Shown here one piece after another: positions 1 through 64,000 of a DNA stretch of 64,000 nt; within the stretch, counting starts at the first letter, position 1, and each line of letters opens with the position of its first letter. The stretch covers positions 251,001 to 315,000 of the forward strand of contig JAENRU010000469.1 of the NCBI GenBank assembly GCA_016647705.1, read 5' to 3'. The stretch is from Eucommia ulmoides. Lineage: Eukaryota; Streptophyta; Magnoliopsida; Garryales; Eucommiaceae. The notes below the pieces were generated by a model. That model was not told the DNA's origin and ran no database searches. It saw only the letters and a list, made by a program, of their open reading frames with translations. Position numbers and translations under genes: made by a program.

Positions 1-33
1 GGTCTTCTTGGGCTTTTGTTGCTATTTTCTCAT
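1..33. repeat. B1 monomer, 5' end cut by the window edge
   Basis: The last third of a B monomer, reading GGTCTTCTTGGGCTTTTG and ending TTTTCTCAT. It shows that the array continues to the left of the window. Confidence 0.9.
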
Positions 34-124
34 GAAAATTGGTATTTTTGGTCCAAACAGACGCAGTCGAATTTTTGTGTCAAACTTGGTCTTTTTGGAC
101 TTTTTGTAGGCGTTTTGTTCTAAA
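34..124. repeat. C1 monomer (representative C family, 91 bp)
   Basis: Begins GAAAATTGGTATTTTTGG and ends GTTCTAAA just before a GACCGTTTC start. C monomers lack the CCGTTTC head that A and B carry, so they begin directly at the shared AAA(A/G)TGGTA box. In C1 the GTCC-N5-GGAC dyad is degraded because the right arm reads AGAC. The usual C1 is 92 bp; this copy is one base short after GGTCC. Confidence 0.92.
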
Positions 125-230
125 GACCGTTTCACCCCAAAAAGTTGTAGTTTTCGCCGAAAATGGACGCATTTGATTCTTCATCTCAAAATTGAATTTT
201 TTGTGTATTTTTGGTGCGGTTTGCTAAGTA
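125..230. repeat. A2 monomer (representative A family, 106 bp)
   Basis: Begins GACCGTTTCACCCC and ends GCTAAGTA. Diagnostic A2 variants are AAAGTTGTAG in place of AAAGTGGTAG and TTCATCTCAAAATTG. In S and M blocks A2 is normally the monomer that precedes the truncated B'. Confidence 0.92.
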
Positions 231-291
231 GGCCGTTTGTCCTAAAAAAAGTGGTATTCTTCGTCCAAAATGGACGAAGTTTAATTTTTGG
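231..291. repeat. B2' truncated monomer (61 bp)
   Basis: Starts like a normal B (GGCCGTTTGTCC), keeps the AAAGTGGTA box and the palindrome, then stops at AATTTTTGG and runs directly into the next A monomer (GGCCGTTTCGCACC). Compared with a full B followed by C, about 134 bp are missing: the last 42 bp of B and a whole C. The same breakpoint recurs throughout the window, with GG shared at the junction. Confidence 0.93.
259..279. repeat. Perfect short palindrome in B monomers (first copy)
   Basis: CTTCGTCC and GGACGAAG form 8-bp arms around a 5-bp spacer AAAAT. It recurs in most B and B' monomers; A4-adjacent B4 monomers keep 6-bp arms and A monomers keep the inner GTCC-N5-GGAC. It could extrude a small hairpin or be a site for a dimeric protein; neither is shown. 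Confidence 0.85.
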
Positions 292-396
292 GGCCGTTTC
301 GCACCGAAAAGTGGTAGTTTTGTCCAAAATGGACGCATTTGACTTCTCATTTCAAAATTGGTTTTCTTGGATATTTTGGGTGCGTTTTGCCCAGTA
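292..396. repeat. A3 monomer (105 bp)
   Basis: Begins GGCCGTTTCGCACC, ends GCCCAGTA. A3 is recognised by GACTTCTCATTTC and nearly always follows a truncated B'. Later copies read either GGTTTTCTTGG or GGCTTTCTTTG near base 70 of the monomer, which separates two A3 subfamilies. Confidence 0.9.
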
Positions 397-498
397 GGCC
401 GTTTCCTCCCGAAAAAGTGGTATTCTTCGTCCAAAATGGTCGAAGTTTAATTTTCGGGTCAAACGCGGTCTTCTGGAGATTTTGTTGCCATTTTCTCC
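397..498. repeat. B3 monomer (102 bp)
   Basis: Begins GGCCGTTTCCTCCC and ends GCCATTTTCTCC. It carries TTTTCGGGTCAAACGCGG rather than the TTTTTGGGTCAAACGCGG of most B1 monomers, which gives it the near match to the CENP-B box. This copy has TGGTCGAAG on the right palindrome arm, breaking the usual TGGACGAAG. Confidence 0.9.
452..468. other. CENP-B-box-like motif (first copy, one core mismatch)
   Basis: The known CENP-B box core is NTTCGNNNNANNCGGGN. This site reads T-TTCG-GGTC-A-AA-CGCG-G, matching 8 of the 9 fixed positions, with C for G at the second-last core base. It recurs in B3 and B4 monomers. Monomers with TTTTTGGGTC match only 7 of 9. No exact match was seen, so binding is only a possibility. 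Confidence 0.4.
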
Positions 499-591
499 GG
501 AAAAGTGGTTTTTTTTTTCCAAAACTGACGCAATCGAATTTTTGAGTCAAACTTGTTCTTTTTGGACTTTTTCTGGGCGTTTTGCTCTGAA
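499..591. repeat. C2m monomer with long T tract (93 bp)
   Basis: Begins GGAAAAGTGG and ends GCTCTGAA, with the diagnostic ACTGACGCAATC. The usual TATTTTTTGTCC is here an uninterrupted T run followed by CC. C2m is typical of M-class blocks, where it introduces the extra trimer. Confidence 0.88.
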
Positions 592-885: not shown

Positions 886-990
886 GGCCGTTTCACATCG
901 AAAAGTGGTAGTTTTGTCCAAAATGGACGCATTTGATTTCTCATTTCAAAATTGGTTTTCTTGGATATTTTGGGTGAGTTTTGCCCAGTA
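886..990. repeat. A1 monomer (105 bp)
   Basis: Begins GGCCGTTTCACATCG, carries GATTTCTCATTTC and ends GTGAGTTTTGCCCAGTA. It directly follows C3 in every block. Confidence 0.92.
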
Positions 991-1093
991 GGCCGTTTCC
1001 ACCCGAAAAAGTGGTATTCTTCGTCCAAAATGGACGAAGTTTAATTTTTGGGTCAAACGCGGTCTTCTTGGGCTTTTGTTGCTATTTTCTCAT
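991..1093. repeat. B1 monomer (representative full-length B, 103 bp)
   Basis: Begins GGCCGTTTCCACCC and ends GCTATTTTCTCAT. In order it contains the CCGTTTC head, AAAAAGTGGTATT, the 8-bp-arm palindrome, GTTTAATTTTTGG, GTCAAACGCGG and the CTTCTTGGGCTTTTGTTGC tail. B' is this monomer with everything after TTTTTGG removed. Confidence 0.92.
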
Positions 1094-1127
1094 GAAAATT
1101 GGTATTTTGGGTGAGTTTTGCCCAGTA
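1094..1127. repeat. C/A chimeric monomer (34 bp)
   Basis: The first 15 bases of C1 (GAAAATTGGTATTTT) continue straight into the last bases of A1 (GGGTGAGTTTTGCCCAGTA). TATTTT is present at both parental positions, so a deletion across that microhomology explains it. It is unique in the window and makes the surrounding block 1198 bp. Confidence 0.88.
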
Positions 1128-1188
1128 GGCCGTTTCCGCCCGAAAAAGTGGTATTCTTCGTCCAAAATGGACGAAGTTTAATTTTTGG
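1128..1188. repeat. B1' truncated monomer (61 bp)
   Basis: Starts with the B1 head (GGCCGTTTCCGCCC) but ends at the standard B' breakpoint (AATTTTTGG, then GGCCGTTTCGCACTG). The breakpoint therefore occurs on a B1 background as well as on B2, as also at about 7.5, 29.7 and 61.5 kb. Confidence 0.88.
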
Positions 1189-1987
1189 GGCCGTTTCGCA
1201 CTGAAAAGTGGTAGTTTTGTCAAAAATGGACGCATTTGACTTCTCATTTCAAAATTGGTTTTCTTGGATATTTTGGGTGCGTTTTGCCCAGTAGGCCGTT
1301 TCCTCCCGAAAAAGTGGTATTCTTCGTCCAAAATGGACGAAGTTTAATTTTCGGGTCAAACGCGGTCTTCTGGGGATTTTGTTGCCATTTTCTCCGGAAA
1401 AGTGGTATTTTTTGTCCAAAACTGACGCAATCAAATTTTTGAGTCAAACTTGTTCTTTTTAGACTTTTTCTGGGCGTTTTGCTCTGAAGACCGTTTCATC
1501 CGAAAAAGTGGTAGTTCTTGCCAAAAATGGACGTATTTGTTTTTTCGTTTCAAAATTGGTTTTCTTGGATATTTTCGGTGCGTTTTGCCCAGTAGGCCGT
1601 TTCCGCCCGAAAAAGTGGTATTCTTCGTCCGAAATGGACGAAGTTTAATTTTTGGGTCAAACGCGGTCGTCTTGGGATTTTATTGCTATTTTCTCGTGAA
1701 AAGTGGTATTTTTGGTCCAAAACGGACGCAGTTGAATTTTTCAATCAAAGTTGGCCATTTTGGGATTTTTGTTGGCGTTCTGCTCTGCAGACCGTTTCAC
1801 CCCCAAAAAGTGGTAGATTTCGCCAAAAATGGACGCATTTGATTTTTCATTTCAAAATTGGTTTTTTTGGGTGCGTTTTGCTCAGTAGGCCGTTTCTGCC
1901 CAAGCAAGTGGTATTCGTCGTCCAAAATGGACGAAATTGAATTTTCGGGTCAAACGCGGTCTTCTTGGGCCTTTGACGATATTTCAT

Positions 1988-3048
1988 CCCAAAAAGTGGT
2001 ATTTTTTGTCCGAAAATGGAGAAAATTTAATTTTTGCGTCAAATTTGGTCTTTTGGGGCCATTTGTAGCCGTTTTTCTTTGAAGGCCGTTTCACATCGAA
2101 AAGTGGTAGTTTTGTCCAAAATGGACGCATTTGATTTCTCATTTCAAAATTGGTTTTCTTGGATATTTTGGGTGAGTTTTGCCCAGTAGGCCGTTTCCGC
2201 CCGAAAAAGTGGTATTCTTCGTCCAAAATGGACGAAGTTTCATTTTTGGGTCAAATGCGGTCTTCTTGGGCTTTTATTGCTATTTTCTCAAGAAAATTGG
2301 TATTTTTGGTCCAAAACAGACGCAGTCGAATTTTTGCGTCAAACTTGGTCTTTTTGGACTTTTTGTCGGCGTTTTGCTCTAAAGACCGTTTCACCCCAAA
2401 AAGTTGTAGTTTTCGCCGAAAATGGACGCATTTGATTCTTCATCTCAAAATTGAATTTTTTGGGTATTTTGGTTGCGGTTTGCTAAGTAGGCCGTTTGTC
2501 CCAAAAAAAGTGGTATTCTTCGTCCAAAATGGACGAAGTTTAATTTTTGGGGCCGTTTCGCACCGAAAAGTGGTAGTTTTGTCCAAAATGGACGCATTTG
2601 ACTTCTCATTTCAAAATTGGCTCTCTTGGATATTTTGGGTGCGTTTTGCCCAGTAGGCCGTTTCCTCCAAAAAAAGTGGTATTCTTCGTCCAAAATGGAC
2701 GAAGTTTAATTTTCGGGTCAAACGCGGTTTTCTGGGGATTTTGTTGCCATTTTCTCCGGAAAAGTGGTATTTTTTGTCCAAAACGGACGCAGTTGAATGT
2801 TCGAGTCAAAGTTGGCCATTTTGGGATTTTAGTTGGCATTTTGCTCTGCAGACCGTTTCACCCCCAAAAAGTGGTAGTTTTTGCCAAAAATGGACGCATT
2901 TAATTTTTCATTTCAAAATTGGTTTTTTTGGGTGCGTTTTGCTCAGTAGGCCGTTTCTGCCCAAAAAAGTGGTATTCGTCGTCCAAAATGGACGAAATTG
3001 AATTTTCGGGTCAAACGCGGTCTTCTTGGGCCTTTGACGATATTTCAT
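1988..3048. repeat. S block, 1061 bp
   Basis: Reads C3 A1 B1 C1 A2 B2' A3 B3 C2 A4 B4. Private variants include CAAATGCGG in B1, GGCTCTCTTGG in A3 and GAATGTTCGAGTC in C2. Confidence 0.9.
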
Positions 3049-4711
3049 CCCAAAAAGTGGTATTTTTTGTCCGAAAATGGAGAAAATTTAATTTTTGCGT
3101 CAAATTTGGTCTTTTGGGGCCATTTGTAGCCGTTTTTCTTTGAAGGCCGTTTCACATCGAAAAGTGGTAGTTTTGTCCAAAATGGACGCATTTGATTTCT
3201 CATTTCAAATTTGGTTTTCTTGGATATTTTGGGTGAGTTTTGCCCAGTAGGCCGTTTACGCCCGAAAAAGTGGTATTCTTCGTCCAAAATGGACGAAGTT
3301 TAATTTTTGGGTTAAACGCGGTCTTCTTGGGCTTTTATTGCTATTTTCTCATGAAAATTGGTATTTTTGGTCCAAAACAGACGCAGTCGAATTTTTGCGT
3401 CAAACTTGGTATTTTTGGACTTTTTGTCGGCGTTTTGCTCTTAAGACCGTTTCACCCCAAAAAGTTGTAGTTTTCGCCGAAAATGGACGCATTTGATTCT
3501 TCATCTCAAAATTGAATTTTTTGCATATTTTGGGTGCGGTTTGCTAAGTAGGCCGTTTGTCCCAGAAAAAGTGGTATTCTTCGTCCAAAATGGACGAAGT
3601 TTAATTTTTGGGGCCGTTTCGCACCGAAAAGTGGTAGTTTTGTCCAAAATGGACGCATTTGACTTCTCATTTCAAAATTGGTTTTCTTGGATATTTTGGG
3701 TGCGTTTTGCCCAGTAGGCCGTTTCCTCCCAAAAAAGTGGTATTCTTCGTCCAAAATGGACGAAGTTTAATTTTCGGGTCAAATGCAGTCTTCTGGGGAT
3801 TTTGTTGCCATTTTCTCCGGAAAAGTGGTATTTTTTGTCCAAAACTGACGCAATCAAATTTTTGAGTCAAACTTGTTCTTTCTGGACTTTTTCTGGGCGT
3901 TTTGCTCTGAAGACCGTTTCACCCAAAAAAGTGGTAGCTTTCGCCAAAAATGGACGTATTTGATTTTTCGTTTCAAAATTGGTTTTCTTGGATATTTTCG
4001 GTGCGTTTTGCCCAGTAGGCCGTTTCCTCCCAAAAAAGTGGTATTCTTCGTCCAAAATGGACGAAGTTTAATTTTCGGGTCAAATGCAGTCTTCTGGGGA
4101 TTTTGTTGCCATTTTCTCCGGAAAAGTGGTATTTTTTGTCCAAAACTGACGCAATCAAATTTTTGAGTCAAACTTGTTCTTTTTAGACTTTTTCTGGGCG
4201 TTTTGCTCTGAAGACCGTTTCATCCGAAAAAGTGGTAGTTTTCGCCAAAAATGGACGTATTTGATGTTTCGTTTCAAAATTGGTTTTCTTGGATATTTTC
4301 GGTGCGTTTTGCCCAGTAGGCCGTTTTCGCCGGAAAAAGTGGTATTCTTCGTCCGAAATGGACGAAGTTTAATTTTTGGGTCAAACGCGGTCGTCTTGGG
4401 ATTTTATTGCTATTTTCTCGTGAAAAGTGGTATTTTTGGTCCAAAACGGACGCAGTCGAATTTTTCAGTCAAAGTTGGCCATTTTGGGATTTTTCTTGGC
4501 GTTTTGCTCTGTAGATCGTGTCACCCCCAAAAAGTGGTAGATTTCGCCAAAAATGGACGCATTTGATTTTTCATTTCAAAATTGGTTTTTTTGGGTGCGT
4601 TTTGCTCAGTAGGCCGTTTCTGCCCAAGCAAGTGGTATTCGTCGTCCAAAATGGACGAAATTGAATTTTCGGGTCAAACGCGGTCTTCCTGGGCCTTTGA
4701 CGATATTTCAT
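3049..4711. repeat. Extended M block, 1663 bp (5 trimers + 1 dimer)
   Basis: An M block carrying one extra trimer. A B3-C2m-A5 stretch is present twice about 301 bp apart, both copies sharing CAAATGCAGTCTTCTGGGG (about 3,780 and 4,081). The duplication looks local and recent. Confidence 0.88.
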
Positions 4712-6209
4712 CCCAAAAAGTGGTATTTTTTGTCCGAAAATGGAGAAAATTTAATTTTTGCATCAAATTTGGTCTTTTGGGGCCATTTGTAGCCGTTTTT
4801 CTTTGAAGGCCGTTTCACATCGAAAGTGGTAGTTTTGTCCAAAATGGACGCATTTGATTTCTCATTTCAAAATTGGTTTTCTTGGATATTTTCGGTGCGT
4901 TTTGCCCAGTAGGCTGTTTCCGCCCAAAAATGTGGTATTATTCGTCCAAAATGGACGAAGTTTAATTTTTGGGTCAAACGCGGTCTTCTTGGGCTTTTGT
5001 TGCTATTTTCTCATGAAAATTGGTATTTTTGGTCCAAAACAGACGCAGTCGAATTTTTGCGTCAAACTTGGTCTTTTTGGACTTATTGTGGGTGTTTTGC
5101 TCTAAAGACCGTTTCACCCCCAAAAGTGGTAGTTTTTGCCGAAAATGGACGCATTTGATTCTTCATCTCAAAATTGAATTTTTTGGGTATTTTGGGTGCG
5201 GTTTGCTAAGTAGGCCGTTTGTCCCAAAAAAAGTGGTATTCTTCGTCCAAAATGGACGAAGTTTAATTTTTGGGTCAAACGCGGTCTTCTAGGGATTTTG
5301 TTTCTATTTTCTCATGTAAAGTGGTCTTTTTGGTCCAAAACGGACGCAGTCGAATTTTAGCGTCAAAGTTAGCCTTTTTGGGCTGGTTGTGGGCGTTTTG
5401 CTCTGAAGACCGTTTCACCCCCAAAAAGTGGTAGTTTTCGCAAAAAATGGACGTATTTGATTTCTCGTTTCAAAATTAGTTTTAAGGGATATTTTCGGTA
5501 CGTTTTGCCCAGTAGGCCGTTTTCGCCGAAAAAAGTGGTATTCTTCGTCCGAAATGGACGAAGTTTAATTTTCGGGTCAAACGCGGTCTTCTGAGGATTT
5601 TGTTGCCATTTTTTCCTGAAAATTTGTATTTTTTGTCCAAAACAGACGCAATCAAATTTTTGAGTCAAACTTGTTCTTTTTGGACTTTTTCTGGGCGTTT
5701 TGCTCTGAAGACCGTTTCACCAGAAAAGTGGTAGTTTTCGCCAAAAATGGACGTATTTGATTTTTCGTTTCAAAATTAATTTTCTGGGATTTTTTCGGTG
5801 CGTTTTGCCCAGTAGGCCGTTTCCGCCTGAAAAAGTGGTATTCTTCGTCCGAAATTGACGAAGTTTAATTTTTGGGTCAAAAGGCGGTCTTCTTGGGATT
5901 TTGTTGCTATTTTCTCGTGAAAGGTGGAATTTCTGGTCCAAAACGGACGCAGTAGAATTTTTAAGTCAAAGTTGGCCATTTTGGGATTTTTGTTGGCGTT
6001 CTGCTCTGCAGACCGTTTCACCCCAAAAAAAGTGGTAGTTTTCGCCAAAAATGGACGCATTTGATTTTTCCTTTCAACATTGGTTTTTTTGGGTACGTTT
6101 TGCTCAGTAGGCCGTTTCTGTCCAAAAAAGTGGTATTCGTCGTCCAGAATGGACGAAATTGAATTTTCGGGTCAAACGCGGTCTTCTTGGGCCTTTGACG
6201 ATATTTTAT
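4712..6209. repeat. L block, subfamily b, 1498 bp
   Basis: Five full trimers with no B'. The B2 position is full length (GCGGTCTTCTAGGGATTTTG) and is followed by a C with GTAAAGTGGTC. Subfamily b is marked by TTTTTTCCTGAAAA near 5,615 and GGTGGAATTTCTGG near 5,921. Its closest partner is the L block at 26,920. Confidence 0.88.
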
Positions 6210-7270
6210 CCCAAAAAGTGGTATTTTTTGTCCGAAAATGGAGAAAATTTAATTTTTGCGTCAAATTTGGTCTTTTGGGGCCATTTGTAGCCGTTTTTCT
6301 TTGAAGGCCGTTTCACATCGAAAAGTGGTAGTTTTGTCCAAAATGGACGCATTTGATTTCTCATTTCAAAATTGGTTTTCTTGGATATTTTGGGTGCGTT
6401 TTGCCCAGTAGGCCGTTTCCTCCCGAAAAAGTGGTATTCTTCGTCCAAAATGGACGAAGTTTAATTTTTGGGTCAAACGCGGTCTTCTTGGGCTTTTGTT
6501 GCTATTTTCTCATGAAAATTAGTATTTTTGGTCCAAAACAGAAGCAGTCGAATTTTTGCGTAAAACTTGGTCTTTTTGGACTTTTTGTAGGCGTTTTGCT
6601 CTAAAGACCGTTTCACCCCAAAAAGTTGTAGTTTTCGCCGAAAATGGACGCATTTGATTCTTCATCGCAAAATTGAATTTTTTGGGTATTTTGGGTACGG
6701 TTTGCTAAGTAGGCCGTTTGTCCCAAAAAAAGTGGTATTCTTCTTCCAAAATGGACGAAGTTTAATTTTTGGGGCCGTTTCGCACCGAAAAGTGGAAGTT
6801 TTGTCCAAAATGGACGCATTTGACTTCTCATTTCAAAATTGGCTTTCTTGGATATTTTGGGTGCGTTTTGCCCAGTAGGCCGTTTCCTCCCAAAAAAGTG
6901 GTATTTTTCGTCCAAAATGGACGAAGTTTAATTTTCGGGTCAAACGCGGTCTTCTGGGGATTTTGTTGCCATTTTCTCTGGAAAAGTGGTATTTTTTGTC
7001 CAAAACGGACGCAGTCGAATTTTTGAGTCAAAGTTGGCCATTTTGGGATTTTTGTTGGCGTTTTGCTCTGCAGACCGTTTCACCCCCAAAAAGTGGTAGT
7101 TTTCGCCAAAAATGGACGCATTTGATTTTTCATTTCAAAATTGGTTTTTTTGGGTACGTTTTGCTCAGTAGGCCGTTTCTGCCCAAAAAAGTGGTATTCG
7201 TCCTCCAAAATGGACGAAATTGAATTTTCGGGTCAAACGCGGTCTTCTTGGGCCTTTGACGATATTTCAT
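6210..7270. repeat. S block, 1061 bp
   Basis: Standard S order. Private variants CAGAAGCAGTCG (C1), GCGTAAAACTTGG (C1) and AAAGTGGAAG (A3) are shared with the S block at 28,416, exactly 22,206 bp away. Confidence 0.9.
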
Positions 7271-8798
7271 TCCAAAAAGTGGTATTTTTTGTCCGAAAAT
7301 GGAGAAAATTTAATTTTTGCGTCAAATTTGGTCTTTTGGGGCCATTTGTAGCCGTTTTTCTTTGAAGGCCGTTTCACATCGAAAAGTGGTAGTTTTGTCC
7401 AAAATGGACGCATTTGATTTCTCATATCAAAATTGGTTTTCTTGGATATTTTGGGTGAGTTTTGCCCAGTAGGCCGTTTCCACCCGAAAAAGTGGTATTC
7501 TTCGTCCAAAATGGACGAAGTTTAATTTTTGGGGCCGTTTCGCACTGAAAAGTGGTAGTTTTGTCTAAAATGGACGCATTTGACTTCTCATTTCAAAATT
7601 GGTTTTCTTGGATATTTTGGGTGCGTTTTGCCCAGTAGGCCGTTTCCTCCCGAAAAAGTGGTATTCTTCGTCCAAAATGGACGAAGTTTCATTTTTGGCT
7701 CAAACGCGGTCTTCTTGGGCTTTTGTTGCTATTTTCTCATGAAAATTGGTATTTTTGGTCCAAAACAGACGCAGTCGAATTTTTGCGTCAAACTTGGTCT
7801 TTTTGGACTTTTTGTCGGCGTTTTGCTCTAAAGACCGTTTCACCCCAAAAAGTTGTAGTTTTCGCCGAAAATGGACGCATTTGATTCTTCATCTCAAAAT
7901 TGAATTTTTTGCATATTTTGGGTGCGGTTTGCTAAGTAGGCCGTTTGTCCCAGAAAAAGTGGTATTCTTCGTCCAAAATGGACGAAGTTTAATTTTTGGG
8001 GCCGTTTCGCACCGAAAAGTGGTAGTTTTGTCCAAAATGGACGCATTTGACTTCTCATTTCAAAATTGGTTTTCTTGGATATTTTGGGTGCGTTTTGCCC
8101 AGTAGGCCGTTTCCTCCCAAAAAAGTGGTATTCTTCGTCCAAAATGGACGAAGTTTAATTTTCGGGTCAAATGCGGTCTTCTGGGGATTTTGTTGCCATT
8201 TTCTCCGGAAAAGTTGTATTTTTTGTCCAAAACTGACGCAATCAAATTTTTGAGTCAAACTTGTTCTTTCTGGACTTTTTCTAGGCGTTTTGCTCTGAAG
8301 ACCGTTTCACCCCAAAAAGTGGTAGTTTTCGCCAAAAATGGACGTATTTGATTTTTCGTTTCAAAATTGGTTTTCTTGGATATGTTCGGTGCGTTTTGCC
8401 CAGTAGGCCGTTTCCGCCCGAAAAAGTGGTATTCTTCGTCCGAAATGGACGAAATTTAATTTTTGGGTCAAACGCGGTCGTCTTGGGATTTTATTGCTAT
8501 TTTCTCGTGAAAAGTGGTATTTTTGGTCCAAAACGGACGCAGTCGAATTTTTCAGTCAAAGTTGGCCATTTTGGGATTTTTGTTGGCGTTTTGCTCTGTA
8601 GATCGTTTCACCCCCAAAAAGTGGTAGATTTCGCCAAAAATGGACGCATTTGATTTTACATTTCAAAATTGGTTTTTTTGGGTGCGTTTTGCTCAGTAGG
8701 CCGTTTCTGCCCAAGCAAGTGGTATTCGTCGTCCAAAATGGACGAAATTGAATTTTCGGGTCAAACGCGGTCTTCCTGGGCCTTTGATGATATTTCAT
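7271..8798. repeat. Compound block, 1528 bp (4 trimers + 2 dimers)
   Basis: Reads C3 A1 B1' A3 B3/B1 C1 A2 B2' A3 B3 C2m A5 B5 C A4 B4, with two truncated B' junctions near 7,532 and 8,000. The B3/B1 hybrid joins GGCCGTTTCCTCCC to GTTTCATTTTTGGCTC. Confidence 0.88.
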
Positions 8799-9859
8799 CC
8801 CAAAAAGTGGTATTTTTGTCCGAAAATGGAGAAAATTTAATTTTTGCATCAAATTTGGTCTTTTGGGGCCATTTGTAGCCGTTTTTCTTTGAAGGCCGTT
8901 TCACATCGAAAAGTGGTAGTTTTGTCCAAAATGGACGCATTTGATTTCTCATTTCAAAATTGGTTTTCTTGGATATTTTGGGTGCGTTTTGCCCAGTAGG
9001 CCGTTTCCGCCCGAAAAAGTGGTATTCTTCGTCCAAAATGGACGAAGTTTAATTTTTGGGTCGAACGCGGTCTTCTTGGGCTTTTGTTGCTATTTTCTCA
9101 TGAAAATTAGTATTTTTGGTCCAAAACAGACGCAGTCGAATTTTTGCGTAAAACTTGGTCTTTTTGGACTTTTTGTAGGCGTTTTGCTCTAAAGACCGTT
9201 TCACCCCAAAAAGTTGTATTTTTCGCCGAAAATGGACGCATTTGATTCTTCATCTCAAAATTGAATTTTTTGGGTAATTTGGGTGCGGTTTGCTAAGTAG
9301 GCCGTTTGTCCCAAAAAAAGTGGTATTCTTCGTCAAAAATGGACGAAGTTTAATTTTTGGTGCCGTTTCGCACCGAAAAGTAGTAGTTTTGTCCAAAATG
9401 GACGCATTTGACTTCTCATTTCAAAATTGGCTTTCTTTGATGTTTTGGGTGCGTTTTGCCCAGTAGGCCGTTTCCTCCCAAAAAAGTGGTTTTCTTCGTC
9501 CAAAATGGACGAAGTTTAATTTTCGGGTCAAACGCGGTCTTCTTTGGATTTTGTTGCTATTTTCTCGTGAAAGGTGGTATTTTTGGTCCAAAACGGACGT
9601 AGTCGAATTTTTAAGTCAAAGTTGGCCATTTTGGGATTTTTGTTGGCGTTTTGCTCTGCAGACCGTTTCACCCCCAAAAAGTGGTAGTTTTCGCCAAAAA
9701 TGGACGCATTTGATTTTTCATTTCAAAATTGGTTTTTTTTGGGTACGTTTTGCTCAGTAGGCCGTTTCTGCCCAAAAAAGTGGTATTCGTCCTCCAAAAT
9801 GGACGAAATTGAATTTTCGGGTCAAACGCGGTTTTCTTGGGCCTTTGACGATATTTCAT
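8799..9859. repeat. S block, first half of 2.417-kb super-repeat copy 1
   Basis: S order with GGGTAATTTGGGTGCGG in A2 and a C of the GAAAGGTGG type with GGACGTAGTCG. A single TTTTTGGTGCCG change at the B' junction (about 9,356) separates it from copies 2 and 3. Confidence 0.9.
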
Positions 9860-11215
9860 CCCAAAAAGTGGTATTTTTTGTCCGAAAATGGAGAAAATTT
9901 AATTTTTGCGTCAAATTTGGTCTTTTGGGGCCATTTGTAGCCGTTTTTCTTTGAAGGCCGTTTCACATCGAAAAGTGGTAGTTTTGTCCAAAATGGACGC
10001 ATTTGATTTCTCATTTCAAAATTGGTTTTCTTGGATATTTTGGGTGAGTTTTGCCCAGTAGGCCGTTTCCGCCCGAAAAAGTGGTATTCTTCGTCCAAAA
10101 TGGACGAAGTTTAATTTTTGGGTTAAACGCGGTCTTCTTGGGCTTTTGTTGCTATTTTCTCATGAAAATTGGTATTTTTGGTCCAAAACAGACGCAGTCG
10201 AATTTTTGCGTCAAACTTGGTCTTTTTGGACTTTTTGTAGGCGTTTTGCTCTAAAGACCGTTTCACCCCAAAAAGTTGCAGTTTTCGCCGAAAATGGACG
10301 CATTTGATTTTTCATCTCAAAATTGAATTTTTTGGGTATTTTGGGTGCGGTTTGCTAAGTACGCAGTTTGTCCTAAAAAAAGTGGAATTCTTCGTCCAAA
10401 ATGTACGAAGTTTAATTTTTGGGGCCGTTTCACCCCCAAAAAGTGGTAGTTTTCGCAAAAAATGGACGTATTTGATTTCTCGTTTCAAAATTGGTTTTAA
10501 GGGATATTTTCGGTGCGTTTCGCCCAGTAGGCCGTTTCCGCCCGAAAAAGTGGTATTCTTCGTCCGAAATGGACGAAGTTTAATTTTTGGGTCAAACGCG
10601 GTCCTCTTGGGATTTTGTTGCTATTTTCTCGTGAAAGGTGGTATTTTTGGTCCAAAACGGACGCAGTCGAATTTTTAAGTCAAAGTTGGCCATTTTGGGA
10701 TTTTTGTTGGCGTTTTGCTCTGCAGACCGTTTCACCCCCAAAAAGTGGTAGTTTTCGCCAAAAATGGATGCATTTGATTTTTCATTTCAAAATTGGTTTT
10801 TTTGGGTACGTTTTGCTCAGTAGGCCGTTTCTGCCCAAAAAAGTGGTATTCGTCCTCCAAAATGGACGAAATTGAATTTTCGGGTCAAACGCGGTCTTCT
10901 TGGGATTTTATTGCTATTTTCTCGTGAAAAGTGGTATTTTTGGTCCAAAACGGACGCAGTCGAATTTTTCAGTCAAAGTTGGCCATTTTGGGATTTTTGT
11001 TGGCGTTTTGCTCTGTAGATCGTTTCACCCCCAAAAAGTGGTAGATTTCGCCAAAAATGGACGCATTTGATTTTACATTTCAAAATTGGTTTTTTTGGGT
11101 GCGTTTTGCTCAGTAGGCCGTTTCTGCCCAAGCAAGTGGTATTCGTCGTCCAAAATGGACGAAATTGAATTTTCGGGTCAAACGCGGTCTTCCTGGGCCT
11201 TTGATGATATTTAAT
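9860..11215. repeat. M-like block, second half of 2.417-kb super-repeat copy 1
   Basis: 1356 bp. B2' carries GTGGAATTCTTCG and ATGTACGAAG, and is followed by an L-type A (GCAAAAAATGGACGTATT, then TTTTAAGGG). The extra trimer follows a B4 that ends GATTTTATTGC instead of the usual C3-leading tail. Confidence 0.88.
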
Positions 11216-53124: not shown

Positions 53125-54185
53125 CCCAAAAAGTGGTATTTTTTGTCCGAAAATGGAGAAAATTTAATTTTTGCGTCAAATTTGGTCTTTTGGGGCCATT
53201 TGTAGCCGTTTTTCTTTGAAGGCCGTTTCACATCGAAAAGTGGTAGTTTTGTCCAAAATGGACCCATTTCATTTCTCATTTCAAAATTGGTTTTCTTGGA
53301 TATTTTCGGTGAGTTTTGCCCAGTAGGCCGTTTCCGCCCGAAAAAGTGGTATTCTTCGTCCAAAATGGACGAAGTTTCATTTTTGGCTCAAACGCGGTCT
53401 TCTTGGGCTTTTGTTGCTATTTTCTCATGAAAATTGGTATTTTTGGTCCAAAACAGACGCAGTCGAATTTTTGCGTAAAACTTGGTCTTTTTGGACTTTT
53501 TGCAGGCGTTTTGCTCTAAAGACCGTTTCACCCCAAAAAGTTGTATTTTTCGCCGAAAATGGACGCATTTGATTCTTCATCTCAAAATTGAATTTTTTGG
53601 GTAATTTGGGTGCGGTTTGCTAAGTAGGCCGTTTGTCCCAAAAAAAGTGGTATTCTTCGTCCAAAATGGACGAAGTTTAATTTTTGGGGCCGTTTCGCAC
53701 CGAAAAGTGGTAGTTTTGTCCAAAATGGACGCATTTGACTTCTCATTTCAAAATTGGCTTTCTTTGATATTTTGGGTGCGTTTTGCCCAGTAGGCCGTTT
53801 CCTCCCAAAAAAGTGGTTTTCTTCGTCCAAAATGGACGAAGTTTAATTTTCGGGTCAAACGCGGTCTTCTTTGGATTTTGTTGCTATTTTCTCGTAAAAG
53901 GTGGTATTTTTGGTCCAAAACGGACGAAGTCGAATTTTTAAGTCAAAGTTGGCCATTTTGGGATTTTTGTTGGCGTTTTGCTCTGCAGACCGTTTCACCC
54001 CCAAAAAGTGGTAGTTTTCGCCAAAAATGGACGCATTTGATTTTTCATTTCAAAATTGGTTTTTTTGGGTACGTTTTGCTCAGTAGGCAGTTTCTTCCCA
54101 AAAAAGTGGTATTCGTCATCCAAAATGGATGAAATTGAATTTTCGAGTCAAACGCGGTCTTCTTGGGCCTTTGACGATATTTCAT
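53125..54185. repeat. S block, 1061 bp
   Basis: S order with GGACCCATTTC in A1, TTTGCAGGCG in C1 and CTCGTAAAAGG at B3-C. B4 carries the double arm change TCATCC/GGATGA. Confidence 0.9.
54116..54132. repeat. B4 palindrome with paired arm changes (copy 1)
   Basis: Arms TCATCC and GGATGA around AAAAT. The usual B4 arms are TCGTCC and GGACGA. Both pairing partners have changed and the dyad is kept. Confidence 0.8.
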
Positions 54186-55246
54186 CCCAAAAAGTGGTAT
54201 TTTTTGTCCGAAAATGGAGAAAATTTAATTTTTGCGTCAAATTTGGTATTTTGGGGCCATTTGTAGCCGTTTTTCTTTGAAGGCCGTTTCACATCGAAAA
54301 GTGGTAGTTTTGTCCAAAATGGACGCATTTGATTTCTCATTTCAAAATTGGTTTTCTTGGATATTTTGGGTGCGTTTTGCCCAGTAGGCCGTTTCCGCCC
54401 GAAAAAGTGGTATTCTTCGTCCAAAATGGACGAAGTTTAATTTTTGGGTCGAACGCGGTCTTCTTGGGCTTTTGTTGCTATTTTCTCATGAAAATTAGTA
54501 TTTTTGGTCCAAAACAGACGCAGTCGAATTTTTGCGTAAAACTTGGTCTTTTTGGACTTTTTGTAGGCGTTTTGCTCTAAAGACCGTTTCACCCCAAAAA
54601 GTTGTAGTTTTCGCCGAAAATGGACGCATTTGATTCTTCATCTCAAAATTGAATTTTTTGGGTATTTTGGGTGCGGTTTGCTAAGTAGGCCGTTTGTGCC
54701 AAAAAAAGTGGTATTCTTCGTCCAAAATGGACGAAGTTTAATTTTTGGGGCCGTTTCGCACCGAAAAGTGGTAGTTTTGTCCAAAATGGACGCATTTGAC
54801 TTCTCATTTCAAAATTGGCTTTCTTTGATATTTTGGGTGCGTTTTGCCCAGTAGGCCGTTTCCTCCCAAAAAAGTGGTTTTCTTCGTCCAAAATGGACGA
54901 AGTTTAATTTTAGGGTTAAACGCGGTCTTCTGGGGATTTTGTTGCCATTTTCTCCGGAAAAGTGGTATTTTTTGTCCAAATTGGACGCAGTCGAATTTTT
55001 GAGTCAAAGTTGGCCATTTTGGGATTTTTGTTGGCGTTTTGCTCTGCAGACCGTTTCACCCCCAAAAAGTGGTAGTTTTCGCCAAAAATGGACGCATTTG
55101 ATTTTTCATTTCAACATTGGTTTTTTTGGGTACGTTTTGCTCAGTAGGCTGTTTCTGCCCAAAAAAGTGGTATTCGTCGTCCAGAATGGACGAAATTGAA
55201 TTTTCGGGTGAAACGCGGTCTTCTTGGGCCTTTGACGATATTTCAT
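54186..55246. repeat. S block, 1061 bp
   Basis: S order with GGGTCGAACGCGG in B1 and TTTTAGGGTTAAACG in B3. GGGTCGAACGCGG is shared with the S blocks of the 2.417-kb super-repeat. Confidence 0.9.
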
Positions 55247-56744
55247 CCCAAAAAGTGGTATTTTTTGTCCGAAAATGGAGAAAATTTAATTTTTGCGTCA
55301 AATTTGGTCTTTTGGGGCCATTTGTAGCCGTTTTTCTTTGAAGGCCGTTTCACATCGAAAAGTGGTAGTTTTGTCCAAAATGGACGCATTTGATTTCTCA
55401 TTTCAAAATTGGTTTTCTTGGATATTTTGGGTGAGTTTTGCCCAGTAGGCCGTTTCCGCCCGAAAAAGTGGTATTCTTCGTCCAAAATGGACGAAGTTTC
55501 ATTTTTGGGTCAAACGCGGTCTTCTTGGGCTTTTGTTGCTATTTTCTCATGAAAATTGGTATTTTTGGTCCAAAACAGACGCAGTCGAATTTTTGCGTCA
55601 AACTTGGTCTTTTTGGACTTTTTGTCGGCGTTTTGCTCTAAAGACCGTTTCACCCCAAAAAGTTGTAGTTTTCGCCGAAAATGGACGCATTTGATTCTTC
55701 ATCTCAAAATTGAATTTTTTGGGTATTTTGGGTGCGGTTTGCCAAGTAGGCCGTTTGTCCCAAAAAAAGTGGTATTCTTCGTCCAAAATGGACGAAGTTT
55801 AATTTTTGGGTCAAACGCGGTGTTCTTGGGATTTTGTTTCTATTTTCTCATGTAAAGTGGTCTTTTTGGTCCAAAACGGACGCAGTCGAATTTTAGCGTC
55901 AAAGTTAGCCTTTTTGGGCTGGTTGTGGGCGTTTTGCTCTGAAGACCGTTTCACCCCCAAAAAGTGGTAGTTTTCGCAAAAAATGGACGTATTTGATTTC
56001 TCGTTTCAAAATTGGTTTTAAGGGATATTTTCGGTGCGTTTTGCCCAGTAGGCCGTTTCCGCCCGAAAAAGTGGTATTCTTCGTCCGAAATGGACGAAGT
56101 TTAATTTTTGGGTCAAAAGGCGGTCATCTTGGGATTTTGTTGCTATTTTCTCGTGAAAAGTGGTATTTTTGGTCCAAAACAGACGCAATCAAATTTTTGA
56201 GTCAAACTTGTTCTTTTCGGACTTTTTCTGGGCGTTTTGCTCTGAAGACCGTTTCACCCCAAAAAGTGGTAGTTTTGCCAAAAATCGACGTATTTGATTT
56301 TTCGTTTCAAAATTGATTTTCAGGGATATTTTCGGTGCGTTTTGCCCAGTAGGCCGTTTCCGCCCGAAAAAGTGGTATTCTTCGTCCGAAATGGACGAAG
56401 TTTAATTTTTGGGTCAAACGCGGTCCTCTTGGGATTTTGTTGCTATTTTCTCGTGAAAGGTGGTATTTTTGGTCCAAAACGGACGCAGTCGAATTTTTAA
56501 GTCAAAGTTGGCCATTTTGGGATTTTTGTTGGCGTTTTGCTCTGCAGACCGTTTCACCCCCAAAAAGTGGTAGTTTTCGCCAAAAATGGACGCATTTGAT
56601 TTTTCATTTCAACATTGGTTTTTTTGGGTACGTTTTGCTCAGTAGGCCGTTTCTGCCCAAAAAAGTGGTATTCGTCGTCCAGAATGGACGAAATTGAATT
56701 TTCGGGTGAAACGCGGTCTTCTTGGGCCTTTGACGATATTTCAT
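55247..56744. repeat. L block, subfamily a, 1498 bp
   Basis: Near-identical to 51,628-53,124, with the A2 base restored. Confidence 0.9.
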
Positions 56745-57806
56745 CCCAAAAAGTGGTATTTTTTGTCCGAAAATGGAGAAAATTTAATTTTTGCGTCAAA
56801 TTTGGTCTTTTGGGGCCATTTGTAGCCGTTTTTCTTTGAAGGCCGTTTCACATCGAAAAGTGGTAGTTTTGTCCAAAATGGACCCATTTCATTTCTCATT
56901 TCAAAATTGGTTTTCTTGGATATTTTCGGTGAGTTTTGCCCAGTAGGCCGTTTCCGCCCGAAAAAGTGGTATTCTTCGTCCAAAATGGACGAAGTTTCAT
57001 TTTTGGCTCAAACGCGGTCTTCTTGGGCTTTTGTTGCTATTTTCTCATGAAAATTGGTATTTTTGGTCCAAAACAGACGCAGTCGAATTTTTGCGTAAAA
57101 CTTGGTCTTTTTGGACTTTTTGCAGGCGTTTTGCTCTAAAGACCGTTTCACCCCAAAAAGTTGTATTTTTCGCCGAAAATGGACGCATTTGATTCTTCAT
57201 CTCAAAATTGAATTTTTTGGGTAATTTGGGTGCGGTTTGCTAAGTAGGCCGTTTGTCCCAAAAAAAGTGGTATTCTTCGTCCAAAATGGACGAAGTTTAA
57301 TTTTTGGGGCCGTTTCGCACCGAAAAGTGGTAGTTTTGTCCAAAATGGACGCATTTGACTTCTCATTTCAAAATTGGCTTTCTTTGATATTTTGGGTGCG
57401 TTTTGCCCAGTAGGCCGTTTCCTCCCAAAAAAGTGGTTTTCTTCGTCCAAAATGGACGAAGTTTAATTTTCGGGTCAAACGCGGTCTTCTTTGGATTTTG
57501 TTGCTATTTTCTCGTAAAAGGTGGTATTTTTGGTCCAAAACGGACGAAGTCGAATTTTTAAGTCAAAGTTGGCCATTTTGGGATTTTTGTTGGCGTTTTG
57601 CTCTGCAGACCGTTTCACCCCCAAAAAGTGGTAGTTTTCGCCAAAAATGGACGCATTTGATTTTTCATTTCAAAATTGGTTTTTTTTGGGTACGTTTTGC
57701 TCAGTAGGCCGTTTCTTCCCAAAAAAGTGGTATTCGTCATCCAAAATGGATGAAATTGAATTTTCGAGTCAAACGCGGTCTTCTTGGGCCTTTGACGATA
57801 TTTCAT
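56745..57806. repeat. S block, 1062 bp
   Basis: Near-identical to 53,125-54,185, including GGACCCATTTC and the double arm change in B4. One extra T in A4. Confidence 0.9.
57737..57753. repeat. B4 palindrome with paired arm changes (copy 2)
   Basis: Same TCATCC/GGATGA arms as at 54,116, inherited through the 3.62-kb duplication. Confidence 0.8.
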
Positions 57807-59928: not shown

Positions 59929-61290
59929 CCCAAAAAGTGGTATTTTTTGTCCGAAAATGGAGAAAATTTAATTTTTGCGTCAAATTTGGTCTTTTGGGGC
60001 CATTTGTAGCCGTTTTTCTTTGAAGGCCGTTTCACATCGAAAAGTGGTAGTTTTGTCCAAAATGGACGCATTTGATTTCTCATTTCAAAATTGGTTTTCT
60101 TGGATATTTTGGGTGAGTTTTGCCCAGTAGGCCGTTTCCGCCCGAAAAAGTGGTATTCTTCGTCCAAAATGGACGAAGTTTAATTTTTGGGTTAAACGCG
60201 GTCTTGTTGGGCTTTTGTTACTATTTTCTCATGAAAATTGGTATTTTTGGTCCAAAACAGACGCAGTCGAATTTTTGCGTCAAACTTGGTCTTTTTGGAC
60301 TTTTTTTCGGCGTTTTGCTCTAAAGACCGTTTCACCCCAAAAAGTTGTAGTTTTCGCCGAAAATGGACGCATTTGATTCTTCATCTCAAAATTGAATTTT
60401 TTGGGTATTTTGGGTGCGGTTTGCTAAGTACGCCGTTTGTCCTAAAAAAAGTGGTATTCTTCGTCCAAAATGTACGAAGTTTAATTTTTGGGGCCGTTTT
60501 GCACCGAAAAGTGGTAGTTTTGTCCAAAATGGACGCATTTGACTTCTCATTTCAAAATTGGTTTTCTTCGATATTTTGGGTGCGTTTTGCCCAGTAGGTC
60601 GTTTCCTCCCGAAAAAGTGGTATTCTTCGTCCAAAATGGACGAAGTTTAATTTTCGGGTCAAACGCGGTCTTCTGGAGATTTTGTTGCCATTTTCTCCGG
60701 AAAAGTGGTATTTTTTTTCCAAAACTGACGCAATCAAATTTTTGAGTCAAACTTGTTCTTTTTGGACTTTTTCTGGGCGTTTTGCTCTGAAGACCGTTTC
60801 ACCCCAAAAAGCGGTAGTTTTCGCCAAAAATGGACGTATTTGATTTTTCGTTTCAAAATTGGTTTTCTTGGATATTTTCGGTGCGTTTTGCCCAGTAGGC
60901 CGTTTTCGCCCGAAAAAGTGGTATTCTTCGTCCGAAATGGACAAAGTTTAATTTTTGGGTCAAACGCGATCGTCTTGGGATTTTATTGCTATTTTCTCGT
61001 GAAAAGTGGTATTTTTGGTCCGAAACGGACGCAGTCGAATTTTTCAGTCAAAGTTGGCCATTTTGGGATTTTTGTTGGCGTTTTACTCTGCAGACTGTTT
61101 CACCCCCAAAAAGTGGTAGATTTCGCAAAAAATGGATGCATTTGATTTTTCATTTCAAAATTGGTTTTTTTGGGTGCGTTTTGCTCAGTAGGCCGTTTCT
61201 GCCCAAGCAAGTGGTATTCGTCGTCCAAAATGGACGAAATTGAATTTTCGGGTCAAACGCGGTCTTCCTGGGCCTTTGACGATATTTCAT
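59929..61290. repeat. M block, 1362 bp
   Basis: M order with GTCTTGTTGGGC in B1, TTTTTTTCGGCG in C1, CAGTAGGTCG at A3-B3, AAAAGCGGTAG in A5 and CGCGATCGTC in B5. Confidence 0.9.
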
Positions 61291-62049
61291 CCCAAAAAGT
61301 GGTATTTTTTGTCCGAAAATGGAGAAAATTTAATTTTTGCGTCAAATTTGGTCTTTTTGGGCCATTTGTAGCCGTTTTTCTTTGAAGGCCGTTCCACACC
61401 GAAAAGTGGTAGTTTTGTCCAAAATGGACGCATTTGATTTCTCATTTCAAAATTGGTTTTCTTGAATATTTTGGGTGAGTTTTGCCCAGTAGGCCGTTTC
61501 CGCCCGAAAAAGTGGTATTCTTCGTCCAAAATGGACGAAGTTTCATTTTGGGGCCGTTTCGCACCGAAAAGTGGTAGTTTTGTCCAAAATGGACTCATTT
61601 GACGTCTCATATCAAAATTGGTTTTCTTGGATATTTTGGGTGCGTTTTGCCCAGTAGGCCGTTTCCTCCCGAAAAAGTGGTATTCTTCGTCCAAAATGGA
61701 CGAAGTTTAATTTTCGGGTCAAACGCGGTCTTCAGGGGATTTTGTTGCCATTTTCTCCGGAAAAGTGGTATTTTTTGTCCAAATTGGACGCAGTCGAATT
61801 TTTGAGTCAAAGTTGGCCATTTTGGGATTTTTGTTGGCGTTTTGCTCTGCAGACCGTTTCACCCCCAAAAAGTGGTAGTTTTCGCCAAAAATGGACGCAT
61901 TTGATTTTTCATTTCAACATTGGTTTTTTTGGGTACGTTTTGCTCAGTAGGCCGTTTCTGCCCAAAAAAGTGGTATTCGTCGTCCAGAATGGACGAAATT
62001 GAATTTTCAGGTGAAACGCGGTCTTCTTGGGCCTTTGACGATATTTCAT
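61291..62049. repeat. Short block, 759 bp (2 trimers + 1 dimer)
   Basis: Reads C3 A1 B1' A3 B3 C2 A4 B4. The truncated B1 reads GTTTCATTTTGGGGCCG, so the standard B' breakpoint sits on the GTTTCATT form of B1, with one T fewer. This suggests that the junction was copied in by exchange with another block. Confidence 0.9.
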
Positions 62050-63411
62050 CCCAAAAAGTGGTATTTTTTGTCCGAAAATGGAGAAAATTTAATTTTTGCG
62101 TCAAATTTGGTCTTTTGGGCCATCTGTAGCCGTTTTTCTTTGAAGGCCGTTTCACATCGAAAAGTGGTAGTTTTGTCCAAAATGGACGCATTTGATTTCT
62201 CATTTCAAAATTGGTTTTCTTGGATATTTTGGGTGAGTTTTGCCCAGTAGGCCGTTTCCGCCCGAAAAAGTGGTATTCTTCGTCCAAAATGGACGAAGTT
62301 TCATTTTTGGCTCAAACGCAGTCTTCTTGGGCTTTTGTTGCTATTTTCTCATGAAAATTGGTATTTTTGGTCCAAAACAGACGCAGTCGAATTTTTGCGT
62401 CAAACTTGGTCTTTTTGGACTTTTTGTCGGCGTTTTGCTCTAAAGACCGTTTCACCCCAAAAAGTTGTAGTTTTCGCCGAAAATGGACGCATTTGATTCT
62501 TCATCTCAAAATTGAATTTTTTGGGTATTTTGGGTGCGGTTTGCTAAGTACGCCGTTTGTCCTAAAAAAAGTGGTATTCTTCGTCCAAAATGTACGAAGT
62601 TTAATTTTTGGGGCCGTTTTGCACCGTAAAGTGGTAGTTTTGTCCAAAATGGACGCATTTGACTTCCTATTTCAGAATTCGTTTTCTTGGATATTTTGGG
62701 TGCGTTTTGCCCAGTAGGCCGTTTCCTCCCGAAAAAGTGGTATTCTTCGTCCAAAATGGACGAAGTTTAATTTTCGGGTCAAACGCGGTCTTCTGGAGAT
62801 TTTGTTGCCATTTTCTCCGGAAAAGTGGTATTTTTTTTTTCCAAAACTGACGCAATCAAATTTTTGAGTCAAACTTGTTCTTTTTGGACTTTTTCTGGGC
62901 GTTTTGCTCTGAAGACCGTTTCACCCCAAAAAGTGGTAGTTTTCGCCAAAAATGGACGTATTTGATTTTTCGTTTCAAAATTGGTTTTCTTGGATATTTT
63001 CGGTGCGTTTTGCCCAGTAGGCCGTTTTCGCCCGAAAAAGTGGTATTCTTCGTCCGAAATGGACAAAGTTTAATTTTTGGGTCAAACGCGATCGTCTTGG
63101 GATTTTATTGCTATTTTCTCGTGAAAAGTGGTATTTTTGGTCCGAAACGGACGCAGTCGAATTTTTGAGTCAAAGTTGGCCATTTTGGGATTTTGTTGGC
63201 GTTTTACTCTGCAGACCGTTTCACCCCCAAAATGTGGTAGATTTCGCAAAAAATGGACGCATTTGATTTTTCATTTCAACATTGGTTTTTTTGGGTACGT
63301 TTTGCTCAGTAGGCCGTTTCTGCCCAAAAAAGTGGTATTCGTCGTCCAGAATGGACGAAATTGAATTTTCGGGTGAAACGCGGTCTTCTTGGGCCTTTGA
63401 CGATATTTCAT
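62050..63411. repeat. M block, 1362 bp
   Basis: M order. It has the longest T run of the C2m series (ten T, about 62,831-62,840), GCACCGTAAAGTGG in A3 and CAGAATTCG near 62,684. Confidence 0.9.
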
Positions 63412-64000
63412 CCCAAAAAGTGGTATTTTTTGTCCGAAAATGGAGAAAATTTAATTTTTGCGTCAAATTTGGTCTTTTGGGGCCATTTGTAGCCGTTTTT
63501 CTTTGAAGGCCGTTTCACATCGAAAAGTGGTAGTTTTGTCCAAAATGGACGCATTTGATTTCTCATTTCAAAATTGGTTTTCTTGGATATTTTGGGTGAG
63601 TTTTGCCCAGTAGGCCGTTTCCGCCCGAAAAAGTGGTATTCTTCGTCCAAAATGGACGAAGTTTCATTTTTGGCTCAAACGCGGTCTTCTTGGGCTTTTG
63701 TTGCTATTTTCTCATGAAAATTGGTATTTTTGGTCCAAAACAGACGCAGTCGAATTTTTGCGTCAAACTTGGTCTTTTTGGACTTTTTGTCGGCGTTTTG
63801 CTCTAAAGACCGTTTCACCCCAAAAAGTTGTAGTTTTCGCCGAAAATGGACGCATTTGATTCTTCATCTCAAAATTGAATTTTTTGGGTATTTTGGGTGC
63901 GGTTTGCCAAGTAGGCCGTTTGTCCCAAAAAAAGTGGTATTCTTCGTCCAAAATGGACGAAGTTTAATTTTTGGGTCAAACGCGGTGTTCTTGGGATTTT
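63412..64000. repeat. Start of another L block, cut by the window edge
   Basis: Reads C3 A1 B1 C1 A2 and a full-length B2 with GCGGTGTTCTTGGG, the marker of L subfamily a. The array continues to the right. Confidence 0.88.

What the first reader, a model, noticed from the sequence alone, without database searches (positions are those of the whole stretch)
1..64000. Satellite whose block lengths are built from two quanta, about 300 bp and 166 bp
Anchor-to-anchor distances fall on 594, 759, 1061, about 1361, 1498, 1529, 1663 and 1832, all close to 300n+166k with k from 0 to 2. The monomer order in each block explains its n and k. Most described higher-order satellites have one dominant block length per array. 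Here several lengths are interleaved but obey one grammar (A-B-C trimers plus an A-B' dimer).
Basis: seen in the sequence. Interest (0 to 1): 0.8.

Follow-up and report, generated by a model that had tools for sequence, protein, structure and literature searches.

The report
Layered satellite array, probable centromere repeat
This stretch is a plant satellite DNA array whose odd block lengths come from a three-part repeat plus a few deleted versions of it that were copied many times, which is a known kind of structure.

Summary
The 64 kb is one satellite, in a genome that matches Eucommia ulmoides by assembly statistics. Parsing gives 234 complete blocks of three sizes, not two: 298-304 bp (133, A-B-C trimers), 292-295 bp (54, trimers with an 8-bp deletion) and 165-168 bp (47, A-b dimers). 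Phase is kept at 657 of 659 monomer joins. The 167-bp block is best read as a trimer that lost 135 bp from B into C; 45 of 49 b monomers show the same junction at the same offset. The blocks build nested higher-order repeats: VWUQR 1498 bp, sTUQR 1362 bp, sPQR 1061 bp.

The grammar is local. The exact 28-base junction occurs 51 times in the 947-Mb genome, all within 123 kb of one 438-kb contig; other parts of the contig have other repeat lengths. Motifs of degenerate relatives cluster on 13 of 17 chromosomes, at one main site on 11, which suggests a centromere-type family with old arrays and a younger homogenised one. Centromere function is untested.

Interleaved higher-order variants derived by deletion are known, for example in human D8Z2. 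My few literature searches found no description of this family. It is a new member of a known kind.

The parts
1..64000 (+). Satellite array, all monomers on one strand; part of a 437,733-bp contig (C32:251001-315000)
144..310 (+). First dimer block s = A4-b, 167 bp (44 A4-b blocks and 3 A1-b blocks in the window)
251..310 (+). Monomer b: in the consensus the first 42 bases equal B2 of V and R (0 differences) and the last 19 bases are closest to C2 (2 differences); junction near 290-293
259..279 (+). Example of the 21-bp dyad CTTCGTCCAAAATGGACGAAG of B-type monomers (115 exact copies in the window)
2403..3463 (+). HOR form sPQR, 1060-1063 bp (21 of 50 complete copies)
7852..9212 (+). HOR form sTUQR, 1361-1363 bp (8 of 50)
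5126..6624 (+). HOR form VWUQR, 1496-1499 bp (6 of 50), without a deletion dimer; V is the undeleted A4-B2-C3 trimer
35500..35966 (+). Shortest HOR form sR, 467 bp (2 of 50; the other at 39921-40387)
905..1207 (+). Irregular block (A1-B2-b-b in the parse) holding both out-of-phase joins of the window
9734..14574 (+). Recent local duplication: 9734-12157 against 12151-14574, 99.8% identical, shift 2417 bp, about two HOR copies long
52087..57686 (+). Recent duplication: 52087-54066 and 55707-57686 identical over 1,980 bp, shift 3620 bp

Best explanation
The window is a homogenised higher-order array of a plant satellite whose basic unit is a ~107-bp monomer that became a trimer (A, B, C). A five-trimer unit, VWUQR (1498 bp), is the longest of the three common forms. 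One illegitimate deletion removed 135 bp across a B-C boundary and made the 167-bp dimer s; an in-register exchange between trimers T and U removed a further trimer length. This gave sTUQR (1362 bp) and sPQR (1061 bp). Unequal homologous exchange, which keeps the A-B-C register, then amplified and mixed these forms in blocks of one or more HOR copies within about 123 kb. The family is probably centromeric or pericentromeric. Shown: monomers, phase, junction, HOR forms, chimeric blocks, locality of the exact junction, clustering of motif hits on chromosomes. Inferred: unequal exchange as the process, the number and order of events, and centromeric location.
For: Monomer order keeps A>B>C>A or A>b>A at 657 of 659 joins, as homologous exchange predicts. 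The b junction is shared: 45 of 49 monomers labelled b show TTTGGGGCCGTTT at the same offset, one has a single substitution, two show it shifted by one base, and one belongs to the irregular block. The exact 28-mer occurs 51 times in the genome, all at C32:243,760-366,413 on the + strand, reversed control 0. The undeleted A4-B2-C3 trimer V is present in 6 complete copies. P matches T up to base 206 and U from base 207, with two sites the other way; T matches R in its first half and W in its second, with two sites the other way. Copies of one HOR form are 95-100% identical (means 97.5-97.7%), while A, B and C consensuses are 67-84% alike. HOR copies of one type are neighbours less often than in shuffles (7 against a mean of 14.3; 0.8% of shuffles as low; 15 of the 50 copies were lumped as 'other'), as expected if amplified segments span several HOR copies; one such 2417-bp duplication is seen directly. 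Motif hits of relatives cluster at one main site on 11 of 17 chromosomes and at two on 2 more.
Against: P and T are not clean two-piece chimeras, so gene conversion or several exchanges are needed. C9 and C10 have two clusters each; C2 and C17 have no hit; C4 has one and C15 three scattered hits; stray hits lie elsewhere on several chromosomes. Only one chromosomal cluster, 2 kb on C6, was read as sequence. The array comes from a PacBio FALCON/Quiver assembly (PMC7603500, passages seen); near-identical repeats could be collapsed or misjoined, and no reads could be checked. No CENH3 or FISH data were available, and the mammalian CENP-B-box pattern has 0 matches in the window.
Confidence: 0.85

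Rival explanations
1. The ~107-bp monomer started as a tandem repeat inside a Ty3/gypsy-type LTR retrotransposon and was expanded into a satellite, as reported for nine of eleven Lathyrus sativus satellites.
For: On contig C20 short degenerate arrays of the same monomer (six monomers of one array, cut by eye, are 68-88% identical to the satellite consensuses; baseline about 60% for one shuffled pair) adjoin LTR-like repeats at 6226, 7039 and 11186 and a gag-start-like frame ending near 8699. Precedent: PMC7004042 (abstract and two sections read).
Against: The gag/array junction of C20 occurs once in the genome at up to 3 mismatches, so this junction is not a copied one; the second junction was asked for but not answered. 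A 2-kb sample on C6 is monomer array throughout. Motif hits are clustered on most chromosomes instead of evenly dispersed. The gag and pol labels are recalled; Pfam gave no retroelement family for three pieces, only two weak unrelated matches. Retroelements inserted in or beside old arrays is the simpler reading.
Confidence: 0.12
2. The lengths are kept by selection, for example for nucleosome phasing: 166 bp as one nucleosome with linker and 300 bp as about two.
For: Only the numerical coincidence and the constancy of block lengths.
Against: The exact junction of the 167-bp block is confined to 123 kb of one contig, and other parts of the contig carry other lengths, such as 222-bp A-C blocks and B-motif spacings of 865, 932 and 1224 bp. 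Deletion plus homologous exchange explains the lengths without selection.
Confidence: 0.04
3. Assembly artefact: collapsed or wrongly joined reads produced the interleaving.
For: FALCON/Quiver assembly, a short contig outside the chromosomes, and segments 99.8-100% identical over 2-2.4 kb.
Against: Monomer phase is kept at 657 of 659 joins, and the haploid source removes allele mixing. Misassembly could change copy order and number but would hardly create one junction in 51 exact copies.
Confidence: 0.06

Closest known systems
Human alpha-satellite higher-order repeats, D8Z2 of chromosome 8 (PMC8099727; passages seen)
   Same: Several HOR lengths interleaved in one array, shorter forms derived from a longer one, regional differences in HOR mix, layers of different identity.
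   Different: Different species and monomer (no sequence comparison made); basic unit here is an A-B-C trimer of ~107-bp monomers; one derivative arises by a deletion inside monomers, whereas the D8Z2 forms are counted in whole monomers.
Plant and animal higher-order satellites surveyed by Melters et al. 2013 (PMC4053949; passages and the section on HOR structure seen)
   Same: Multimers of diverged monomers acting as the repeat unit; clear cases in 76 of 171 species with Sanger data.
   Different: That survey rarely saw units of three or more monomers, for want of read length; here the three common units have 11 to 15 monomers.
Retrotransposon-derived satellites of Lathyrus sativus (PMC7004042; abstract and two sections read)
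   Same: Tandem monomers found beside Ty3/gypsy-like sequence (the label here is recalled).
   Different: The one array/retroelement junction tested here is unique in the genome.
Arabidopsis CEN178/CEN159 length variants (recalled, no call)
   Same: A shorter variant of a centromeric repeat unit.
   Different: Not compared by sequence here.

Membership tests
Satellite DNA (long tandem array) | Head-to-tail tandem copies over tens of kilobases | tested here: met
   660 monomers over 64,000 bp; the 19 other loci read on C32 (173,733 bp) are the same satellite
Higher-order repeat array | Identity between HOR copies much higher than between the monomers inside a copy | tested here: met
   95-100% between copies of one HOR form against 67-84% between A, B and C consensuses
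Higher-order repeat array | Monomer types in fixed order | tested here: met
   657 of 659 joins in phase; three forms make up 35 of 50 complete HOR copies
Centromeric satellite | One main cluster per chromosome | tested here: inconclusive
   motif hits cluster on 13 of 17 chromosome contigs, at one main site on 11; C9 and C10 have two, C4 and C15 only scattered hits, C2 and C17 none
Centromeric satellite | Bound by CENH3 / located at the primary constriction | not testable with these tools
   needs ChIP or FISH
Centromeric satellite with CENP-B box | TTCGNNNNANNCGGG (recalled; a mammalian feature) | tested here: not met
   0 matches on either strand in the window
Retrotransposon-derived satellite | Monomer arrays at a fixed place inside a repeated LTR element | tested here: inconclusive
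   one junction of one locus tested, unique in the genome at up to 3 mismatches, which speaks against it; the second junction did not complete

The most novel reading that the evidence does not exclude
This is the centromeric repeat family of Eucommia ulmoides with an alphoid-like life history: old, degenerate 107-bp monomer arrays at one site on most chromosomes, and a young homogenised higher-order core, perhaps specific to one chromosome (in the listed hits the C-type B motif of this contig recurs nine times at C9:46.18-46.20 Mb and once each on C3 and C5), in which a single out-of-register deletion gave a new unit that spread through 123 kb.
Probability: 0.45. Interest if true: 0.5.

Novelty: new member of a known kind. 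Interest (0 to 1): 0.35.

Why it matters
It gives a candidate centromere satellite for a tree whose genome paper has no occurrence of 'satellite' or 'centromer' in the held main text, with sequences ready to be tested as probes. The parse also shows, in one array, steps from trimer to shortened higher-order repeat, including a deletion junction that can be followed copy by copy. Beyond that it confirms known rules of satellite evolution.

Tried and rejected
Matches elsewhere: exact motif scans of prokaryote genomes (0) and viral contigs (0; one 18-mer hit, whose locus does not align to the window); blastn of one 1061-bp piece against plasmids and phages (none); Rfam at gathering scores (none). 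These collections are of prokaryotes, their viruses and plasmids, so this says little. Literature: searches for lengths, for five sequence strings and for Eucommia with satellite or centromere terms (20 of 223 papers listed) showed no description of this family; subscription papers, figures and supplements are not covered. Searches were for comparison systems or the assembly size.

Coding: only 3 ORFs of 150 aa or more in 64 kb; not pursued.

Retrotransposon origin: considered after the C20 locus, then lowered (see rivals). A 15-base version of the b junction also occurs once in the first 10 kb of C20; the 28-base form does not, so it was not counted as the b unit.

Chromosome assignment of the contig: a Q-specific motif was to be looked for on C9, but the tool did not complete.

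Dropped before counting: low-identity labels 'b' in the parse of L003, whose first 2.3 kb is inverted; blocks of unlisted composition and groups of one; groups under 6 copies in the substitution count; the 11 spacings of 2,500 bp or more.
Full report
WHERE IT IS. The window is C32:251001-315000 of a 946,670,599-bp genome in 391 contigs. The contigs C1-C13, C16 and C17, whose lengths I saw, are 43-80 Mb long; hit positions show that C14 and C15 reach at least 15.9 and 54.7 Mb; C32 is 437,733 bp. The statistics match the haploid Eucommia ulmoides genome (PMC7603500, passages seen): 947.86 Mb, 17 pseudochromosomes, scaffold N50 53.15 Mb and longest scaffold 79.92 Mb, against C10 = 53,144,382 bp and C8 = 79,924,242 bp here. 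The species is therefore an inference, a strong one. The start of C9 holds degenerate plant-type telomere repeats.

WHAT THE ARRAY IS MADE OF. A decomposition with 11 monomer models yields 660 monomers. A is 105-108 bp (98-99 bp in the subtype with an 8-bp deletion), B is mostly 88 bp, C is mostly 106-107 bp, and b is mostly 60 bp. Complete blocks starting at A number 234: 133 of 298-304 bp, 54 of 292-295 bp, 47 of 165-168 bp. Part of this fit follows from the phase: in an array that keeps A-B-C order, block lengths must be sums of the units.

WHAT THE 166-bp UNIT IS. The consensus of monomer b equals the first 42 bases of B2 as found in trimers V and R (0 differences) followed by a tail closest to C2 (2 differences over 19 bases, against 4 or 9 for the other C types). 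The block is 135 bp shorter than the undeleted trimer V (A4-B2-C3), which is present in 6 complete copies. The junction is the same in nearly all copies (45 of 49 at the same offset), so one illegitimate deletion followed by amplification is the simplest account. By eye from the consensuses the overlap at the junction is about one base, which fits illegitimate joining. Because the tail is C2-like and the next monomer is A1-like, the donor may have been a Q-R boundary further on and not the same trimer; the data do not settle this.

HIGHER-ORDER FORMS. Split at A4, the window has 50 complete copies: sPQR 21, sTUQR 8, VWUQR 6, sTUQPQR 3, and 12 in rarer arrangements. P is a T/U chimera (T-like to base 206, U-like from 207, with two sites the other way) and T looks like an R/W chimera with two exceptions. 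So the 1061-bp form is the 1362-bp form less one trimer length by in-register exchange. The direction is inferred: a chimeric P is more simply made from T and U than the reverse. Phase is kept at 657 of 659 joins; both exceptions are in the irregular block 905-1207. Copies of one form are 95-100% identical. Segments have been duplicated recently (99.8% over 2,424 bp at a shift of 2,417; 100% over 1,980 bp at a shift of 3,620).

THE GRAMMAR IS LOCAL. The exact 28-base b junction occurs 51 times in the genome, all at C32:243,760-366,413 on one strand, 32 of them in the window; the reversed control has 0. Variant junctions would be missed by this exact search. On C32, 19 loci amounting to 173,733 bp were read besides the window; 10-100 kb, 110-200 kb and 210-230 kb were seen only through motif hits, of which the first 100 were listed. 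Outside the junction stretch the contig is the same trimer satellite with other HOR lengths: B-motif spacings of about 893 bp near 1-30 kb, 879/897 bp at 37-46 kb, and 865/895/932/1224 bp at 130-155 kb, and 222-bp A-C blocks in the samples at 200-210 and 230-240 kb (four and two). The first 10 kb is more diverged (mean identity to the window's monomers 0.847, against 0.94-0.985 in the other parts except the partly inverted L003). Each domain thus has its own derivative, as expected when arrays homogenise locally.

RELATIVES ON CHROMOSOMES. Three motif searches of the genome (36 + 29 hits; 30 + 45; 639 + 127, first 100 listed in contig order, so complete up to C31) put clusters at C1 1.80-1.89, C3 23.31-23.52, C5 19.16-19.36, C6 36.81-37.13, C7 13.25-13.28, C8 54.69-55.00 (two hits), C9 46.13-46.20 (and 33.88), C10 42.60-43.91 and 45.56-45.99, C11 40.50-41.20, C12 31.76 (two hits), C13 32.44-32.60, C14 15.95-15.98 (two hits) and C16 30.30-30.69 Mb. 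Stray single hits lie on C4, C5, C9, C10, C14, C16 and three on C15; C2 and C17 have none. The clusters near 1.8 Mb of C1, 46.2 of 47.5 Mb of C9 and 41 of 43.8 Mb of C11 are close to contig ends, which for a centromere would mean acrocentric chromosomes. One cluster was read: 2 kb on C6 is a degenerate array with TRF matches of 64-70% at 106-107 bp and a hint of a 213-bp dimer (77%), without the A-B-C trimer order being seen. The exact 30-base B motif of the young array (507 + 25 hits) is listed first on C32, so by contig order it is absent from C1-C31. This is the pattern of an old layer and a young homogenised array, as in primate alpha satellite. It suggests, but does not show, a centromeric family.

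OTHER FEATURES. B-type monomers carry a 21-bp dyad, CTTCGTCCAAAATGGACGAAG (115 exact copies; a 9-bp stem by the script's count, reached by 0 and 0.7% of 300 dinucleotide-preserving shuffles for the B2 consensuses of R and T, 0.3% for b). B1 and the U form of B2 have weaker dyads (8.3% and 2.3% of shuffles), and the A and C consensuses tested have none beyond chance (46% or more). CpG is over-represented in the window (observed/expected 1.28; 1.12-1.32 in 19 other C32 loci) against 0.49-1.05 in 14 non-satellite samples. Even so, C-to-T and G-to-A changes are about 2.2 times as frequent at CpG as at other sites (25.3 against 11.6 and 20.7 against 9.1 per 1000), a mild sign of germline CG methylation. 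The two together are unexplained.

ORIGIN OF THE MONOMER. On C20 degenerate copies adjoin LTR-like repeats and a gag-start-like frame (the gag label is recalled). A retrotransposon source is a known route (PMC7004042), but the one gag/array junction tested is unique in the genome and the family is clustered, so insertion of retroelements into or beside old arrays is more likely here.

COMPARISON WITH THE KNOWN. Human D8Z2 has four main interleaved HOR types, derivatives of an 11-monomer form and regionally distributed (PMC8099727). Higher-order structure is widespread in plants and animals (PMC4053949). The present array is a new member of that kind. What is distinctive is modest: an out-of-register deletion that became a regular unit and can be traced to one junction and one 123-kb stretch.

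Noticed in passing
window 259-279 and 114 further exact copies: 21-bp dyad CTTCGTCCAAAATGGACGAAG in B-type monomers, beyond chance in the B2 consensuses of R and T and in b; a possible protein-binding or structure-forming site.
   Followed up: partly
window 1-64000; C32 loci L002-L007 and L018-L030: CpG is enriched (observed/expected 1.12-1.32) although CpG sites in the window show about twice the transition rate of other sites.
   Followed up: partly
L037 3413-8699 and L038 (contig C20): LTR-like repeats in inverted order with a gag-start-like frame and pol-end-like frames (labels recalled) next to short degenerate arrays of the same monomer.
   Followed up: partly
L003 33-2325 (C32 about 100.0-102.3 kb): Inverted segment of the satellite; in the other C32 loci read, the anchor GTGGTA was found on one strand only.
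   Followed up: no
L004 and L018 (C32:200001-210000 and 230001-240000): Another deletion derivative, a 222-bp A-C block (four and two copies).
   Followed up: no
C9:46184199-46195954: Nine copies of the C-type B motif, two pairs of them 594 bp apart; the largest group of this motif type on a chromosome in the listing.
   Followed up: partly
contigs C18 and C20 (L036, L037): Contig lengths of exactly 250,000 and 500,000 bp, and C20 begins with 2,500 N; a sign of how the assembly was cut.
   Followed up: no
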